Shown here: positions 10,983 through 30,475 of the stretch, one piece after another | Layout of the letters: each line of letters opens with the position of its first letter | Numbering within the stretch: the stretch's first letter is position 1 | DNA from: Bacteroidales bacterium | Lineage (GTDB): Bacteria; Bacteroidota; Bacteroidia; Bacteroidales; UBA3824 | Direction: 5' to 3' | Length of the DNA: 38,038 bases | Assembly (NCBI GenBank): GCA_024401025.1 | Contig: JAKSLV010000013.1 | Coordinates: 1 to 38,038 of the forward strand | Translations under genes and position numbers: made by a program | The notes under the pieces: model-generated | The model's input: only the letters and a program-made list of their open reading frames with translations | Databases searched by the model: none | What the model was told of the DNA's origin: nothing

Positions 10983-12263
10983 ATGGGCTGGTTCGCTAAT
11001 TTATTCAAGAGCAAGAAGAAAATTGCAGAGCAATTTAATAATGCTGATATGAAGGTTCTTGTTATGAATACCCAAAAGGGAAAGGTGAATACTCTCGTAA
11101 ACGCTAGAGAGCACGCCACCAAGGATTCCAAGGTACTCTTCAGGCTTAAAAAGCATACTATCGTAAATGTGACAGGCCAGAACGACGAGTGGGTAAAGAT
11201 AAACACCGTGCTGGGTCAGGCCTATTGTATGAAGAAATATGTAGACATCCAGGAATCGTTCCAGAAGCTTCTGGTGGAGGCCAAGGTGCTGAACGTGAGA
11301 TCGTTCTACAGCACTGATGCCACCATTATGGGCACAGTGAAGAAGGGCGATGTGCTCCTGATGCTAAGCAAGCATTCCAACTGGTATGGCATAGATTTCA
11401 ACGGCAAAACTGGATACGTATGCGCCGATTACGTTACCCTGCTGGACGATACCAGCAGCAACAGCAAAGGCAGCAGCGTCAGCAACAATACCACCACCAA
11501 CACTACCACCAACACCAAGAAGGAGGAGACCCGCCAGTTTTTCAACTCCAGGAAAGACCTGGCCAAGGTGGACCTGGCTCCAAAGAAACAGCTGTCGGCC
11601 GATGGACAGGACAAGTATGGCAAGGTGGCTGTAAAGACCTGGAACAATTTCGGAAACATCATCACCGTGATAAGCAAGGAGCTGGGCATCGACGTGGCCC
11701 GCGCCTTGGCTGTGATATGCGTGGAGAGCGGCGGAAGCGCCTTCAGCAGCGACGGCCGTATGCTTATCCGTTTCGAGAATCACGTTTTCTATACATATTA
11801 CGGCGCCAAGAGCGACGACAAGAAGGAGAAATTCGACGAGCATTTCGCCTTTGACGAGAGCAGCCGCCGCAACGGCCACAAGTACCGCGCCAAGAAGAGC
11901 GACGAGTGGAAAACCAGCCACAACGGACAGGCCACAGAGTGGGAGGCCCTCGAGATTGCCAGAAAGCTTGGCGACACCGAGGCGCTATATTCCATCAGCA
12001 TGGGCGCGCCTCAGGTGATGGGCTTCAACTACAAGATGATAGGCTACTCGTCGGTGCAGGATATGTTCGAATCCTTCAGCAAGGACATCCGCTACCACAT
12101 CATGGCCCTCTTCGACTTCATAGCCGCCAAGAGCTCGCGCGTGCAGTACCTCATAACCGGCGATTTCCTCTCGTTTGCCAAGGAATACAACGGCCTGGCA
12201 GCCCCTGAGGCCTACGAGAGCCGCCTTATCCAGTACTACGAGATCTACAAGAAACTTCTGTAA
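10983..12263 (+). CDS. SH3-SH3-N-acetylmuramidase without signal peptide
   Basis: This 426-residue protein has two bacterial SH3-like domains (about 23-90 and 96-155), a Ser/Thr/Asn linker (156-180), and a C-terminal N-acetylmuramidase domain of the phage-endolysin type (DUF3380 family). The catalytic glutamate is probably Glu248 in VICVESGG, followed by the family motifs LIRFENHVFY and SMGAPQVMGFN. Such enzymes cut the MurNAc-GlcNAc bond. The N-terminus (MGWFANLFKSKKK) has no Sec signal or lipobox, so export would need a holin, a secretion machine or cell lysis. Its stop codon overlaps the start of the next gene by one base, indicating translational coupling to the vWA membrane protein. No canonical promoter is clear upstream. 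A domesticated endolysin or a secreted effector are alternatives. Confidence 0.85.
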   Translation: MGWFANLFKSKKKIAEQFNNADMKVLVMNTQKGKVNTLVNAREHATKDSKVLFRLKKHTIVNVTGQNDEWVKINTVLGQAYCMKKYVDIQESFQKLLVEAKVLNVRSFYSTDATIMGTVKKGDVLLMLSKHSNWYGIDFNGKTGYVCADYVTLLDDTSSNSKGSSVSNNTTTNTTTNTKKEETRQFFNSRKDLAKVDLAPKKQLSADGQDKYGKVAVKTWNNFGNIITVISKELGIDVARALAVICVESGGSAFSSDGRMLIRFENHVFYTYYGAKSDDKKEKFDEHFAFDESSRRNGHKYRAKKSDEWKTSHNGQATEWEALEIARKLGDTEALYSISMGAPQVMGFNYKMIGYSSVQDMFESFSKDIRYHIMALFDFIAAKSSRVQYLITGDFLSFAKEYNGLAAPEAYESRLIQYYEIYKKLL

Positions 12264-24108: not shown

Positions 24109-24621
24109 CTATCCGGCAGCGCCCTCCTCCTCGAAGTATGAATTGTCTACTGTTGTAACGCCATCCTCATCCATTGGGTTGTGGTAGTTGTTGGCAGCGT
24201 ACTGTGATGCGATTGCAGCCTCAGAGATAGCCTTGGTCTTGCTCTTATCAACAGAACTGATGTGGTGCATAACCTTGGCGCCGAAATAGAAGGCTACCAT
24301 CATCTGGAAGGCGGCGAGGAACTCGCTCGACCTTTCCTCGAGACCAATCATTCTTACGTTGGCAAGCTCTATCACTACTGTGATGAAAAGCAACGACATT
24401 GTAAGGATTCCTCGGATGGTACCACGAGGCATGTTGAAAGTCTCGCCCTCGTTTGGATTGGGGTTGTCCTTGGTCCAATCGCCGAATGTGTATTTTCTGA
24501 ACATTACCACAATAAAGATTGTGGAGATTATAAGCCAAACCATTACCGGCATATAGATGCTCATGTAATACTCTAACTTATGGTAATGCCAATACATTAC
24601 TATATCTGGGTAATTATCCAT
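24109..24621 (-). CDS. Three-helix membrane protein, holin-like in size and layout
   Basis: This 170-residue protein shows hydrophobic segments at about 20-41, 72-88 and 104-115, the last ending FYFGAKV. A conserved-looking MPRGTIRGIL motif precedes the second segment. The tail is polar and acidic. I do not recognise a characterised family. In context it is the last gene of a unit headed by an amidase without signal peptide, and a small multi-helix membrane protein is where a phage lysis cassette carries its holin. That role is inference; a structural membrane protein of an unrelated complex is equally possible. Confidence 0.8.
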   Translation of the reverse strand: MDNYPDIVMYWHYHKLEYYMSIYMPVMVWLIISTIFIVVMFRKYTFGDWTKDNPNPNEGETFNMPRGTIRGILTMSLLFITVVIELANVRMIGLEERSSEFLAAFQMMVAFYFGAKVMHHISSVDKSKTKAISEAAIASQYAANNYHNPMDEDGVTTVDNSYFEEEGAAG

Positions 24622-24686
24622 AATTTATAAATAAGTTTTATTGGTTGATTATTAATTAATTATCGTTGTTTGGATGCGGCTGTGCC

Positions 24687-25139
24687 TTAATCGTTGAAAA
24701 GGAGATATCCCACACCGAGGCCCACTGCCACTCCGGCTGCTATTCCCCAGGAAGCGAGTTTGGCGCGGCGGCGGTATTTCTTGGCCATCTTGCCGGCCTC
24801 CAGGAGGTCCTCGCGGCTTGTCTTAAGCTCGGTCTGGTAATACAGCTTGTCGGTCTTCAGGATTTCTATCAGCGAATCCTTCTGCTGCGACAATGCTACC
24901 AGTGTGTCGCATTTCTCGGTAAGGGTTGCCACCTGCTCTTTGGAGATCCTGTAGAGCTTGCCGGTTTCTATCACAGACCTCATTCGTGCGTCGTTCATTA
25001 CCCAGAGAGTGTCGCCGTCGGGTTTCACCAGAAGCTCCTGACCGGGTTTTACGCATTGCAGTGTGATCTGGGCCTTTGCGCTGCCGGCCACAAAGATAGA
25101 TATCAGCAATACTATTATGCTAAGTGTAATCCTATTCAT
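24687..25139 (-). CDS. Signal-peptide coiled-coil protein with C-terminal membrane helix
   Basis: The 150-residue product begins with a signal peptide (MNRITLSIIVLLISIFVAGSAKAQ). A short beta region (LQCVKPGQELLVKPDGDTLWVMND) follows, then a coiled coil (SKEQVATLTEKCDTLVALSQQKDSLIEIL) and a basic stretch (KKYRRRAK). A glycine-rich C-terminal helix (WGIAAGVAVGLGVGYLLF) suits membrane insertion. Small periplasmic coiled-coil proteins of this layout are common in phage-like and envelope modules. It overlaps the preceding coding sequence by 8 bases, which implies coupling. No named family is recognised. Confidence 0.8.
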   Translation of the reverse strand: MNRITLSIIVLLISIFVAGSAKAQITLQCVKPGQELLVKPDGDTLWVMNDARMRSVIETGKLYRISKEQVATLTEKCDTLVALSQQKDSLIEILKTDKLYYQTELKTSREDLLEAGKMAKKYRRRAKLASWGIAAGVAVGLGVGYLLFND

Positions 25140-25563
25140 CTTTCAAGTTTCCGTATAGTTGTTCAAAAGCAATGGCCATCTCGTCGGAGCTCATCTGCCT
25201 AACCTCGTTGCTTACGTTTGCGGCCTGTTTCTCGAGAGCCTCAGTCTTGGAATCAAGCTCGGAGATCTTCTTGTTGAGTTTCTCGATCTCGGCCTCCTTG
25301 TCGGCTATCTTGGCGTCGTATTCCTGACGGTGCTCCTCATCGTTGTCCATTCCGTTTTTGGCCTTGTTTATCAAGTCCTGAATGCTGTCTACGTTGTTGT
25401 TGTTGAACAGCTTGTTCTTGATGAAGGTGTAAGGACCAGCAAGGGCGGAAAAGATGCATGTCAGGGTCTGCCATTTAAAGTTGAGGTATCCGGCCTCGTG
25501 GAGTACGCCTATTACCACAAGCGCCACTAGCACCACCACAATTATTATAATCCACTTTTTCAT
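25132..25563 (-). CDS. Small N-terminally anchored coiled-coil membrane protein
   Basis: The 143-residue product has a strong N-terminal helix (IIIIVVVLVALVVIGVL, residues 4-20) and a second hydrophobic stretch (about 31-46). A long coiled coil follows (KIADKEAEIEKLNKKISELDSKTEALEKQAANV, about residues 80-115) with an acidic C-terminus. The topology resembles an i-spanin: an inner-membrane anchor carrying a coiled coil. The resemblance is structural only. It sits 21 bases after the amidase gene and overlaps the next gene by 8 bases. Confidence 0.8.
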   Translation of the reverse strand: MKKWIIIIVVVLVALVVIGVLHEAGYLNFKWQTLTCIFSALAGPYTFIKNKLFNNNNVDSIQDLINKAKNGMDNDEEHRQEYDAKIADKEAEIEKLNKKISELDSKTEALEKQAANVSNEVRQMSSDEMAIAFEQLYGNLKDE

Positions 25564-25584
25564 GCTGTATGTCTGTATTTAATG

Positions 25585-26406
25585 TTAGTTGACATCAAGA
25601 TATTTGCCGAACACCCAGCCTTCCACTGTGGTGCGCACCTTGTACCAGCCGTTTTTCTCGCCCACAATCGAAACCAGAGTGCCCTTTGGCAGCGGCTGAG
25701 CCACCAACATTCCGTCGGTTTCGGGAGTGTTGCGGATATTTAGCGACTGCGAAACCACACGTCCGGTATCTGGCGATTCGGCTGCTCCGTCGCTCTTGCG
25801 GTCGGATCCCAGCAGCTGCTCGCGAAGCTTGTCGAGAGGGAAAGCTGGACCCGGATCTATCTTGCGCGATGGCGCGATTTCCTCGTGGCCAAGTATCTGC
25901 TTGATGTTTGGATATGCCTCTATTAGCTCGGCGCAGAGCTGACGCACGGTCTCGATCTGCTCGGCGGTGTATACGTGCCAGTATTTTGGTGTTGACTGGT
26001 TTCTGTGTATAGCCTCCACAACATCGCTGGGATTGTATGCGGCGCCAAACCACGATCTGTATACGTTTCCGCTCTTGGTAAGGGGACCCGAATTAACGAT
26101 CTCTATACCTATTGAATACTTGTTGTATCCCGAGCGTCCGCCGTAGCTGCTCTCGCCTGCGTGCCAGGCAATCTCGTTGAATGGTATCAGCTGAGTTATG
26201 GATCCGTCGCGGTCGATAAGTACGTGTGCCGAAGCCTTCACCTTTGGGTTTACCAATGTGTTGAGAGAAGACTGATAAGGGCCTGCGGTATAGTGTATCA
26301 CTATAGTGTCGGGATATTTTTTCTCGAACTCTCCGCTGGTCTTGTTGCAGCTCACCATCTTCCTGACGTTGTCTCCGCTTACCAAATAGTCCTTTATTTG
26401 TAACAT
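25585..26406 (-). CDS. N-acetylmuramoyl-L-alanine amidase with SH3 domain
   Basis: This 273-residue protein combines an Amidase_2 (AmpD/PGRP-like) domain with a C-terminal SH3-like domain (about 214-273: SQSLNIRNTP, GWYKVRT, EGWVFGKYLDVN). Zinc ligands are apparent as His38 (IVIHYTAG), His174 (ILGHEEI) and Asp184 (RKIDPGPAFPLD), with Lys182 beside them. The SSYGGRSGYNKYSIGIEI stretch is typical. It would cleave the MurNAc-L-Ala bond. No signal peptide is visible, as in phage endolysins and cytosolic AmpD. It leads a four-gene unit with three small membrane proteins. A role in wall recycling is the plain alternative. Confidence 0.9.
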   Translation of the reverse strand: MLQIKDYLVSGDNVRKMVSCNKTSGEFEKKYPDTIVIHYTAGPYQSSLNTLVNPKVKASAHVLIDRDGSITQLIPFNEIAWHAGESSYGGRSGYNKYSIGIEIVNSGPLTKSGNVYRSWFGAAYNPSDVVEAIHRNQSTPKYWHVYTAEQIETVRQLCAELIEAYPNIKQILGHEEIAPSRKIDPGPAFPLDKLREQLLGSDRKSDGAAESPDTGRVVSQSLNIRNTPETDGMLVAQPLPKGTLVSIVGEKNGWYKVRTTVEGWVFGKYLDVN

Positions 26407-26484: not shown

Positions 26485-27375
26485 TTATTTTTTGAAAGAG
26501 CGTTCCAAGTCGCATCCCACCAGGAGTGTCTTTATAAGGTTGGGAGGTCCTTCGAAACCTCTCTCCTCGGCTCTTACGAACACAGCCACGCGGTCCTCGT
26601 ATGGGCTCTTGATAACACCCTGCACAAACCTTCCGAGACAGATGTTGAAGTCGTTCTCTGTGTAGGAGTATACCTGCTTGGTGCCGAGTTCCGGAGATTT
26701 CAGGAAAATGTTGGTGGTTTTCACAACCTCGAATCCGAAATCTGGATCGGTCTCCATCTTGTTCTCGATAGTCACCTTGTATTTGTTGCCCATAGCCTGG
26801 AATTCGGTGCCGAGCAGTTTGATGTCGTTCTGAGGGATGATCTTGTACTCGTTAAGCTTCTCGGCAAAGGTGATGTTGTTCTCGCTCCACATCTCCTTGA
26901 TGCTGCCCGACTCGCGCTCCTCGTCTTCCTGTTTCCACACATACACATCCTGTCCGCTTATCATATTGCGGATTACGAGGTTGAAGAAATAGATACCTGC
27001 GGCCTCGTCGATTGGCTCGAGGGCGTATGCGAAATATCCATCCTTGCTCCAGCCTATTGGGAATATCTTCTCATGGAGGAATTCGTCGGTTCCCTGATAG
27101 TATTTAAGCTCGGCAGGAACTTTGTATGTCTGCTTAATCATTTCCAACGGAAGGGGTTCGTCGTCCACCGATTTTGGACTCTCGTCTTCCTGCTGTTTGA
27201 TTACCTCTTCCACAATCTGACTGTGTTCGTCAGCGGTAAGAGGCTTCTCGGCTGCCTCGTTGGCATTCTGGGCACCTCCATTGTCGGAGTTTCCCTTGTT
27301 GCCGCTGCAGCCCATTAGTGAAGCCACAATTACGGCAGCCACCATTAATTTGTTGAGTTTCAGTATTTTGCTCAT
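26485..27375 (-). CDS. Lipoprotein of unknown function
   Basis: The 296-residue product starts MSKILKLNKLM and has a lipoprotein signal with lipobox SLMGC. A TTG nine bases upstream extends the frame, but the ATG at 27375 gives a better signal peptide. After the cysteine comes a low-complexity Asn/Gly/Glu tether (SGNKGNSDNGGAQNANEAAE). The globular part contains GWSKDGYFAYALE and VWKQEDEERESGS, reminiscent of a repeat-type or beta-rich ligand domain, but I cannot name a family. It is upstream of the amidase cluster on the same strand, with 78 bases between, where the cluster's own promoter lies. Confidence 0.82.
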   Translation of the reverse strand: MSKILKLNKLMVAAVIVASLMGCSGNKGNSDNGGAQNANEAAEKPLTADEHSQIVEEVIKQQEDESPKSVDDEPLPLEMIKQTYKVPAELKYYQGTDEFLHEKIFPIGWSKDGYFAYALEPIDEAAGIYFFNLVIRNMISGQDVYVWKQEDEERESGSIKEMWSENNITFAEKLNEYKIIPQNDIKLLGTEFQAMGNKYKVTIENKMETDPDFGFEVVKTTNIFLKSPELGTKQVYSYTENDFNICLGRFVQGVIKSPYEDRVAVFVRAEERGFEGPPNLIKTLLVGCDLERSFKK

Positions 27376-27499
27376 TGTGTTCAAACGATTGGCTTGTAAT
27401 TATTAATCCGCTCTAAAATTAGAAAGTTTTTTTGAGAAAACATCTATGAAATTCATATTTTTTTGTCAAAATAAATTTTTTTATTCGGAATATCTTTTC

Positions 27500-29242: not shown

Positions 29243-30475
29243 GTGACAAGAAGGCATATATATATAATAGTGTTGCTGCTGATGCAGGTGTTGGCAGGCA
29301 GCGGATGTCTGGTGAATCCGGACGACGAGCATGTACTGGGCACATCGGTACCAACGTCTTTCCAGAAGCCCAAGCCGCCTCTGGTGTGCGCGTACCTCCA
29401 TATCGGCACACGCAACCTCGACGCAGCCAACATCGACCTGGAGGGCGTGGATTTCGTCAACATGGCGTTTACGGCCATCAAAAACAACCGTATGGCACTC
29501 CTCCACGAGGGCGATTCCAAAAACTTCATGATAACAAAAAAGCTCAAGCGCAAGTATCCGTCAATCAAGGTGTTGGTATCAGTGGGCGGATACGGCACTT
29601 CAAAGAGTTTCTCGCAGATGGCATCAGACTCTGCTAGCAGGGCCACCTTTGTGGACGACGCTGTAAAATTTGTAAGGCACTACGGAATGGACGGCATCGA
29701 CCTCGACTGGGAGTTTCCGGGATTGGAGAAAAGCACCCGCGAAACCGACAGGGTAAGCTTCACGGCCCTGATATCAGAGCTTAGACGGGAGCTCAACAAG
29801 GTGTCGAGGCTCGACGGCAAGCATTACTATCTAACAGTGGCATCAGGAGCTTTCGACTTGTATCTGCATTATATAGAGCCGCTTAGGATAGTTGACCTCG
29901 TGGATTACTTCCATATTATGACCTACGACTTTTATGGTCAGTGGAATTCGTATACGGGACACCACGCCAACCTCTTTCCATCGGCCCAGCGCCCCAACGG
30001 ATATTCCGTAAAGAGAATCACCGATATATATATAAAGAGTGGCATTCCGCGCGAGAAGATTGTGATAGGCGCCGCTTTCTACGGAAGGGAGTGGAGTGGG
30101 GTAGATGCCACCAACAACGGCCTCTACCGTCCTGGCAAGGGCGTAGGCTCTGTAAGCTACAAGAACATAAAGGCGATGCTCTCCAGCAAGTCGGGATATG
30201 TGCCTTACTGGGATGCCAAGGCCAAAGCCCCGTATATGTATAACGCTGCCACAAAGCGTTTTATATCTTATGAGGACGCCAATTCGGCCAGAATGAAGGT
30301 AAACTACGCCTACGCGCACCGCCTGGGTGGCATCATGTATTGGGAGCATTTCTCCGACAGCGACGGCGAGCTGGCCGGAACCATCATACGCCAGGCCGGA
30401 ACGCTCAGGGGAGATTTCCCATTGTTCACCCTTCCCGGAGGTTTTGTGCTATATTGCAAAAAAAATGGCAAATAA
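29243..30475 (+). CDS. Lipoprotein glycoside hydrolase family 18 (chitinase-like)
   Basis: The 410-residue product starts at GTG, with signal peptide TRRHIYIIVLLLMQVLAGSGC; the cysteine at 22 is a likely lipid site, though the lipobox GSGC is not classical. The GH18 barrel shows SVGGY, the catalytic DGIDLDWE with Glu157 as the acid, MTYDFYG, YGREW and the GGIMYWEHFSD strand. GH18 covers chitinases and endo-beta-N-acetylglucosaminidases; the full DxxDxDxE motif points to an active enzyme. Lipid anchoring suggests the cell surface, for cutting chitin, GlcNAc polymers or host N-glycans. No SusC/SusD pair lies nearby. The start is set by the -7 box and the signal peptide. Confidence 0.9.
   Translation: MTRRHIYIIVLLLMQVLAGSGCLVNPDDEHVLGTSVPTSFQKPKPPLVCAYLHIGTRNLDAANIDLEGVDFVNMAFTAIKNNRMALLHEGDSKNFMITKKLKRKYPSIKVLVSVGGYGTSKSFSQMASDSASRATFVDDAVKFVRHYGMDGIDLDWEFPGLEKSTRETDRVSFTALISELRRELNKVSRLDGKHYYLTVASGAFDLYLHYIEPLRIVDLVDYFHIMTYDFYGQWNSYTGHHANLFPSAQRPNGYSVKRITDIYIKSGIPREKIVIGAAFYGREWSGVDATNNGLYRPGKGVGSVSYKNIKAMLSSKSGYVPYWDAKAKAPYMYNAATKRFISYEDANSARMKVNYAYAHRLGGIMYWEHFSDSDGELAGTIIRQAGTLRGDFPLFTLPGGFVLYCKKNGK

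What the first reader, a model, noticed from the sequence alone, without database searches (positions are those of the whole stretch)
24109..26406. Four-gene unit laid out like a phage lysis cassette, without other phage genes
An Amidase_2-SH3 protein without signal peptide is followed within 21 bases by a small protein with an N-terminal membrane anchor and long coiled coil. Next, overlapping by 8 bases, comes a signal-peptide coiled-coil protein with a C-terminal helix, and last a three-helix membrane protein. The order recalls endolysin, inner and outer spanin-like proteins and holin. One promoter and one terminator bracket the unit. No capsid, tail, integrase or terminase gene is within the window. 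It could be a domesticated lysis module (for example for releasing particles or for programmed lysis) or an unknown envelope-remodelling complex.
Basis: partly seen in the sequence, partly recalled or inferred. Interest (0 to 1): 0.75.

Follow-up and report, generated by a model that had tools for sequence, protein, structure and literature searches.

The report
Chromosomal phage-style cell-wall-opening gene cassette
Many Bacteroidales-type bacteria carry, as an ordinary chromosomal operon, an enzyme related to those phages use to burst cells together with membrane partners, and the likely hole-forming partner ends in a short conserved tail that may hold the enzyme until it is let out.

Summary
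A lipoprotein gene (E) stands in front, giving E-A-B-C-D. A-B-C-D is complete and in order in 53 of 56 fetched loci (Bacteroidota, Calditrichota, one labelled Chlorobi), with varying flanks and low dN/dS. A is full-length homologous to phage endolysins. No relative of D was found in two viral collections, so a prophage remnant is unlikely. Sheath genes occur in few D-positive genomes.

D is holin-like in anatomy, not by family; B and C do not fit spanins well.

The unexpected result is D's tail: [A/S/T/P]-x-G in 58 of 58 loci with a separate wall-hydrolase gene, 0 of 5 where the hydrolase is fused to a membrane partner or was not found. Holin-like proteins beside homologous endolysins in phages end alike: 9 of 9 found by sequence similarity, although homology to D is not shown. 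I read the tail as a hydrolase dock. Function is inferred: controlled export of A, as in T10SS or programmed lysis. Cargo unknown.

The parts
26485..27375 (-). Gene E: putative lipoprotein with a beta-rich domain; accessory fifth gene in front of A (ATG at 27375; a longer TTG start lies at 27384)
   Evidence: Invariant Cys after a hydrophobic signal in an alignment of 33; found in front of A in 38 of 56 loci, median gap 84 bases; AF2 mean pLDDT 81; no PDB fold match at E<=0.001
25585..26406 (-). Gene A: Amidase_2 + SH3_3 wall hydrolase, no hydrophobic signal, endolysin-type
   Evidence: Pfam; full-length phage endolysin homologues, about 31-42% identity in the listed rows (alignment); H38, E102, H174, K182, D184 invariant in 55 A proteins
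25132..25563 (-). Gene B: N-terminal TM, conserved second hydrophobic stretch, coiled coil
24687..25139 (-). Gene C: signal-peptide-like segment, short 'DTLWV' region, coiled coil, C-terminal hydrophobic helix
24109..24621 (-). Gene D: holin-like protein, three helices, predicted N-out/C-in
   Evidence: Motifs PRGxxR and FYFGxKVMHH nearly invariant; helices; charge pattern
24112..24123 (-). Last four codons of D (GAAG): the A-x-G tail, proposed hydrolase-docking motif
   Evidence: Ends in G in 55 of 56 loci, A at -3 in 51 of 56; link to a separate hydrolase gene

Best explanation
The unit is a chromosomally maintained, phage-type wall-hydrolase export (lysis) module. A is made in the cytoplasm as an endolysin. 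D, an inner-membrane holin-like protein, holds A at the membrane through its cytoplasmic C-terminal [A/S/T/P]-x-G tail. When triggered, D lets A across the inner membrane, where A cuts peptidoglycan (MurNAc-L-Ala amidase by family). B (inner-membrane hairpin plus coiled coil) and C (periplasmic coiled coil with a C-terminal membrane helix) organise the site or help breach the envelope; E is a lipoprotein that senses or restrains. The outcome is controlled opening of the wall, T10SS-like or lysis of a subset of cells. Shown: gene content, order, conservation, homology of A to phage endolysins, the tail and its link with an unfused hydrolase. Inferred: topology, docking, export, lysis, the roles of B, C and E, the trigger and the cargo.
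For: Synteny in 53 of 56 loci. Full-length homology of A to phage endolysins, catalytic residues invariant. Hydrolase swap: a muramidase instead of the amidase before B-C-D in L142, L250 and L251; hydrolase fused to D in L058 and L252. Tail: 58 of 58 loci with a separate hydrolase gene in the locus, plus L095 whose genome has A elsewhere, against 0 of 5 without one (neither A nor a PF11860 muramidase in G655 and G687). L045, a further locus not among those 64, also has the tail. Background: 0 of 391 other complete ORFs of 100 aa or more end in [A/S/P]-x-G, 9 of 391 end in G. Same kind of ending on holin-like proteins beside homologous phage endolysins: 9 of 9 found by sequence similarity (six phage records, one identical to another, and three viral contigs). 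dN/dS 0.011-0.175 in 29 comparisons. Charges favour N-out/C-in for D.
Against: No holin or spanin family is matched convincingly by B, C or D: 15 of 20 D members match only phrog_13256 of unknown function over a short stretch, one of 20 matches a holin/anti-holin family at E 0.064, and B's Rz-like hit (E 1.1e-4) is one of 55 families hit, mostly coiled-coil-type. D and the phage holin-like family are not demonstrably homologous (hhalign probability 0.1%, at most 3.4%; one weak reverse hmmsearch hit, E 9e-4 in a 57-sequence set). B and C fit spanins poorly. In several viruses the G-ending tail is on a single-TM Rz-like protein whose C-terminus should be periplasmic, which does not fit docking in the cytoplasm. 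15 of 29 viral clusters labelled SH3 showed no motif protein nearby. The five tail-less loci are about three lineages; in L108 more in-frame stops follow the shortened D, so its tail loss may be general decay. Other hydrolase families were not searched in the tail-less genomes. No expression, lysis or secretion data exist.
Confidence: 0.58

Rival explanations
1. A non-lytic envelope complex: A is an AmpD-like or remodelling amidase tethered at the inner membrane by D and B, acting in wall turnover, division or stress, with no hole formation.
For: D in 18 of 19 same-genus genomes, strong purifying selection, AmpD equivalog similarity (112.5 bits), varied non-phage flanks; some phage records also annotate their homologues as AmpD.
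Against: The AmpD score is under its cut-off of 143 bits. The C-terminal SH3 domain fits wall binding rather than soluble muropeptides (general knowledge). The hydrolase is swapped for muramidases in relatives, without an apparent signal peptide by eye in L142 and L250 (L251 is cut off). Full-length relatives in annotated phages are endolysins; cellular databases were not searched for closer non-cassette relatives.
Confidence: 0.27
2. Degenerate prophage lysis genes caught in the chromosome.
For: A is endolysin-like; the gene set resembles a phage cassette.
Against: A-B-C-D conserved over many families with varied flanks and in Calditrichota-type genomes; no relative of D in viral contigs or phages; dN/dS 0.011-0.175; 21 chromosomal A proteins group together with one viral row among them.
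Confidence: 0.05
3. Dedicated release module for contractile injection systems or tailocins.
Against: 22 of 26 D-positive genomes have none, 1 of 26 D-negative genomes has one, and none of the 7 same-genus genomes searched has one (101), although D is near-universal in the genus. Only one sheath family was searched.
Confidence: 0.03
4. The A-x-G tail of D is a degron, a processing site or a dock for another protein, not for the hydrolase.
For: Short C-terminal motifs are often protease signals (general knowledge); similar endings also occur on Rz-like viral proteins; tail loss in L108 may be decay.
Against: In the 64 loci tabulated the tail is absent where the hydrolase is fused or was not found and present elsewhere (L095 counts with A found elsewhere in its genome), and it recurs on viral proteins next to related hydrolases.
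Confidence: 0.3

Closest known systems
Type 10 secretion systems (Serratia marcescens SmaLC, Yersinia entomophaga YenLC)
   Same: [quoted passage not shown] hydrolase plus small membrane proteins.
   Different: No holin or spanin family match here, no recognised Rz/Rz1 gene in the unit, different gene order, extra lipoprotein E, no known cargo.
Lysis cassettes of alphaproteobacterial phages of the DSS3P8 type
   Same: Homologous Amidase_2-SH3 endolysin; a nearby 2-TM holin-like protein ends in [A/S/T/P]-x-G.
   Different: D has a third TM and no demonstrable homology to that protein; these phages have Rz/Rz1-like genes where this unit has B and C.
Natural holin-endolysin fusions of Clostridium sporogenes (PMC9527704, passages read)
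   Same: Hydrolase joined to the C-terminus of the membrane partner, as in L058 and L252.
   Different: TpeE-family holin there; in most of our loci the link would be a short tail instead of a fusion.

Membership tests
Phage-type lysis cassette (holin-endolysin-spanin) | Endolysin homologous to phage lysins, without signal peptide | tested here: met
Phage-type lysis cassette (holin-endolysin-spanin) | Holin of a recognised family | tested here: not met
   D: no holin family above noise in Pfam, PHROGs or NCBIfam (best holin-type hit E 0.064 in 1 of 20 members); hhalign to the phage holin-like family 0.1-3.4%
Phage-type lysis cassette (holin-endolysin-spanin) | Class I holin topology (3 TM, N-out, C-in; recalled) | tested here: inconclusive
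   Helices, charge distribution; prediction only
Phage-type lysis cassette (holin-endolysin-spanin) | Inner spanin: one N-terminal TM with periplasmic coiled coil | tested here: inconclusive
   B has a conserved second hydrophobic stretch followed by positive charges, but only 17 of 54 pass the threshold; weak Rz-like PHROG hit E 1.1e-4 among 55 families
Phage-type lysis cassette (holin-endolysin-spanin) | Outer spanin: small lipoprotein | tested here: not met
   C has a signal-peptide-like segment with no evident lipobox by eye (at most L107 of 54 could be read as one) and a C-terminal hydrophobic helix (21, 62, 67); a separate 114-aa putative lipoprotein lies between B and C in the Calditrichota locus L121 (38)
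Type 10 secretion system | Holin/endolysin/spanin cluster outside prophages | tested here: inconclusive
   Outside prophages in the loci seen; holin and spanin identity not met as above
Type 10 secretion system | Release of proteins depends on the cluster | not testable with these tools
   Needs experiment
AmpD muropeptide-recycling amidase | NCBIfam equivalog cut-off | tested here: not met
   112.5 bits against a cut-off of 143
CIS release module | Co-occurrence with a sheath gene | tested here: not met
   4 of 26 D-positive, 1 of 26 D-negative; over the cut-off 3 against 0; one sheath family only

The most novel reading that the evidence does not exclude
The C-terminal, often acidic, [A/S/T/P]-x-G tail is a general hydrolase-docking signal of holin-like proteins, found on apparently unrelated membrane proteins of phages and of bacterial chromosomes and dispensable when the hydrolase is fused. 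It would be a candidate for the recognition principle between holin and endolysin that one review calls still to be identified.
Probability: 0.4. Interest if true: 0.85.

Novelty: new variant of a known kind. Interest (0 to 1): 0.7.

Why it matters
If true, Bacteroidota and Calditrichota carry a lysis or export system of their own kind, near-universal in at least one Bacteroidales genus (18 of 19 genomes) whose closest named relatives come mostly from ruminant and horse gut metagenomes. That could explain release of cytoplasmic proteins or particles. [quoted passage not shown]

Tried and rejected
Phage origin of D: a viral-contig scan and a phage tblastn with D gave no relative (27 gave two chance hits at E 0.5). 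Viral-contig scans with the B and C alignments could not run. Structure search of D in viral models: best E 0.44. Structure search of E in PDB: none at E<=0.001; a periplasmic lysozyme inhibitor at rank 12 (E 0.053) is not evidence. Homology of D with the phage holin-like family: not shown. CIS co-occurrence: not supported (21 of the 22 D-positive genomes, without G145, plus 5 further same-genus genomes were tested). Bacteroidota promoter at the unit: not found. GH18-like gene as a T10SS cargo clue: it is near the cassette in five same-genus genomes but was not found in the fetched flanks of the other same-genus loci, so it is only a passing note.

Choices made after seeing data: the motif was AxG first, then [A/S/P]-x-G, then [A/S/T/P/G]-x-G and [A/S/T/P]-x-G. 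With G at -3 excluded, the viral count is 13 instead of 14 of 29 (127). In one search, 57 of 80 viral loci were kept; 23 dropped out because the script's lysin pattern did not find the ORF, among them L193 and L194, which carry the tail. Three of the 14 positive clusters (L159, L172, L177) are contigs I had already seen. The SH3 label there is a short pattern; L200 is probably mislabelled as lacking SH3. L198's motif protein looks like a lipoprotein. Ten of 12 non-SH3 and 22 of 29 SH3 clusters had any membrane ORF in reach. Of the 17 proteins compared, eleven were picked by ending in G and one by its exact ending. In the tree (103) 21 chromosomal rows were chosen by me, and the row labelled G656_A is in fact the A protein of L099.

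Full report
Observation. A is Amidase_2 plus SH3_3 without a hydrophobic segment. A fifth gene, putative lipoprotein E (26485-27375), lies 78 bases upstream. mfd follows downstream. Promoter matches are at background and no Bacteroidota-type promoter match lies at the unit.

Conservation. D was found in 18 of 19 same-genus genomes within a set of 60 relatives (24 of 60 in all), in 22 of 247 genomes sampled from the order (own genome included), and in 7 of 82 genomes of the phylum of L108, a Caldithrix-labelled record, its own genome included. A profile search of 395 genomes of the phylum found the window's own D and one convincing relative (G544, E 8.5e-17); the other 15 genomes with a match gave only short matches at E 2e-4 to 8e-4. 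A scan of named genomes returned 56 loci from Bacteroidota and Calditrichota records, one labelled Chlorobi. In 53 of the 56, A-B-C-D is complete and in order; the exceptions are L095 (D alone), L108 (no A) and L113 (no B or C). E is recognised in 38 of 56; some loci end at contig edges. Flanking genes differ between families. All 29 dN/dS values from six sequence pairs (E was missing in one) lie between 0.011 and 0.175, so the genes are under selection.

Gene A. In annotated phages 54 records matched, 22 of them over at least 80% of the query, at roughly 31-42% identity in the 30 listed rows, which are annotated as amidases, endolysins, lysins or AmpD. In an alignment with ten phage and viral proteins, three chromosomal copies are 38-42% identical to the DSS3P8 enzyme and share the SH3 region. 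Residues recalled as the catalytic set of this fold are invariant in 55 A proteins. In a tree of 62 rows the 21 chromosomal copies that I chose fall in one supported set (97/95) with a single viral row, L207, from a contig with phage-like genes. A scores under the AmpD equivalog cut-off. I did not search cellular proteins outside the cassettes for closer relatives of A.

Membrane partners. D has near-invariant PRGxxR and FYFGxKVMHH motifs, three main helices in the model (pLDDT 73.6) and a charge pattern that fits N-out/C-in (mean K+R in 49 rows: loop 1 3.4, C-side 3.0, N-terminus 0.8, loop 2 0.3, or 1.0 if loop 2 is taken wider). Five of 20 members match DUF1182 weakly, 15 of 20 match a phage family of unknown function over a short stretch, and one matches a holin/anti-holin family at E 0.064. 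B has a conserved second hydrophobic stretch (mean hydropathy 0.89 in 21 rows) followed by positive charges, which suggests a hairpin and a cytoplasmic coiled coil rather than an inner spanin; only 17 of 54 B proteins pass the threshold for a second segment. C has a signal-peptide-like segment but no evident lipobox, and a C-terminal hydrophobic helix. E has a confident beta-rich model without a fold match.

Swaps and fusions. In L142, L250 and L251 a muramidase precedes B-C-D; no signal peptide is apparent by eye in L142 and L250, and L251's gene runs off the contig. In L058 and L252 the muramidase is fused behind D. In L058 a DUF5675 domain is fused behind a B-like hairpin, and L253 looks the same by resemblance (117, not family-scanned). 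So the partners stay while the hydrolase changes, as in phage cassettes.

The tail. D ends in G in 55 of 56 loci, with A at position -3 in 51. Among 391 other complete ORFs of at least 100 aa in the same loci, 9 end in G and none in [A/S/P]-x-G. Over 64 loci (the 56 plus L058, L142 and L248-L253), [A/S/T/P]-x-G is present in 58 of 58 with a separate hydrolase gene in the locus, and in L095 whose genome has A elsewhere. It is absent in the 5 where the hydrolase is fused (L058, L252, L253) or was not found (L108, L248). G655 and G687 have neither A nor a PF11860 muramidase; they are drafts and other hydrolase families were not searched. Many rows are close relatives, the five tail-less loci are about three lineages, and L108's D is followed by further in-frame stops and may simply be decaying, so the Fisher value computed overstates the evidence.

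Phage parallel. The idea came from four phages, where the 2-TM protein a few genes after the endolysin ends in EAKG, GAKG, GARG and GAKG. A similarity search with one of them found six phage records (the four, an identical copy, and MAL1, which ends in EARG) and three viral contigs ending in EAQG, TPRG and ESKG: nine of nine. A survey of 80 viral loci with related amidases gave, after automatic filtering to 57 loci in 41 clusters, the motif on a nearby hydrophobic ORF in 14 of 29 clusters labelled SH3 and 0 of 12 labelled without. Lowering the hydrophobicity threshold added L185 and L196. Seventeen holin-like proteins form one family by phmmer; all end in G and 15 in [A/S/T/P]-x-G, but 12 of the 17 were selected by their ending. 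Profile comparison does not show homology between D and this family. Against the docking idea, several viruses carry the ending on Rz-like single-TM proteins, and about half of the SH3 clusters show no motif protein; seven of these contigs have a soluble protein after the endolysin instead.

Function. The reading that best joins these facts is a holin-endolysin-type export module kept by the chromosome, comparable in kind to T10SS (PMC10847048, passages read). Holin-endolysin fusions and the open question of holin recognition are described in PMC9527704 (passages read). CIS release is not supported. Whether the unit kills cells or opens the wall locally cannot be told from sequence. Seven searches of a CC-licensed PMC library listed 15 of 410, 15 of 15, 5 of 5, 6 of 6, 1 of 1, 12 of 210 and 8 of 19 matching papers; none of the listed titles and abstract openings describes this operon or this tail. 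Only two of those papers were opened, and papers outside that library were not searched.

Noticed in passing
window 10983-12263 (+): A second wall hydrolase without an apparent signal peptide: two SH3_3 stretches plus PF11860 muramidase, overlapping by one base a 701-aa membrane protein; similar in make-up to the muramidase that replaces A in L250.
   Followed up: partly
window 29243-30475 (+): GH18-like chitinase, putative lipoprotein (best model 121 bits, far under its cut-off of 750), near the cassette in five same-genus genomes; chitinases are T10SS-linked in Serratia (PMC9527704, passages).
   Followed up: partly
L058 5889-8676, L253 5566-8177, L113 2326-3826: A DUF4230 lipoprotein and a larger membrane protein of the same kind follow D or stand near it (by Pfam in L058 and for the L113 lipoprotein; otherwise by resemblance): possible further partners.
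   Followed up: no
L121 7149-7493: In this Calditrichota locus a small putative lipoprotein lies between B and C, and a small TM coiled-coil protein follows D; the lipoprotein is more like an outer spanin than C is.
   Followed up: no
L045 3882-4589: Gene C appears internally duplicated.
   Followed up: no
L161, L164, L169, L170, L171, L173, L175: A soluble repeat-like protein ending in -YG, -FG or -WG stands directly after the endolysin in these viral contigs instead of a membrane protein.
   Followed up: no
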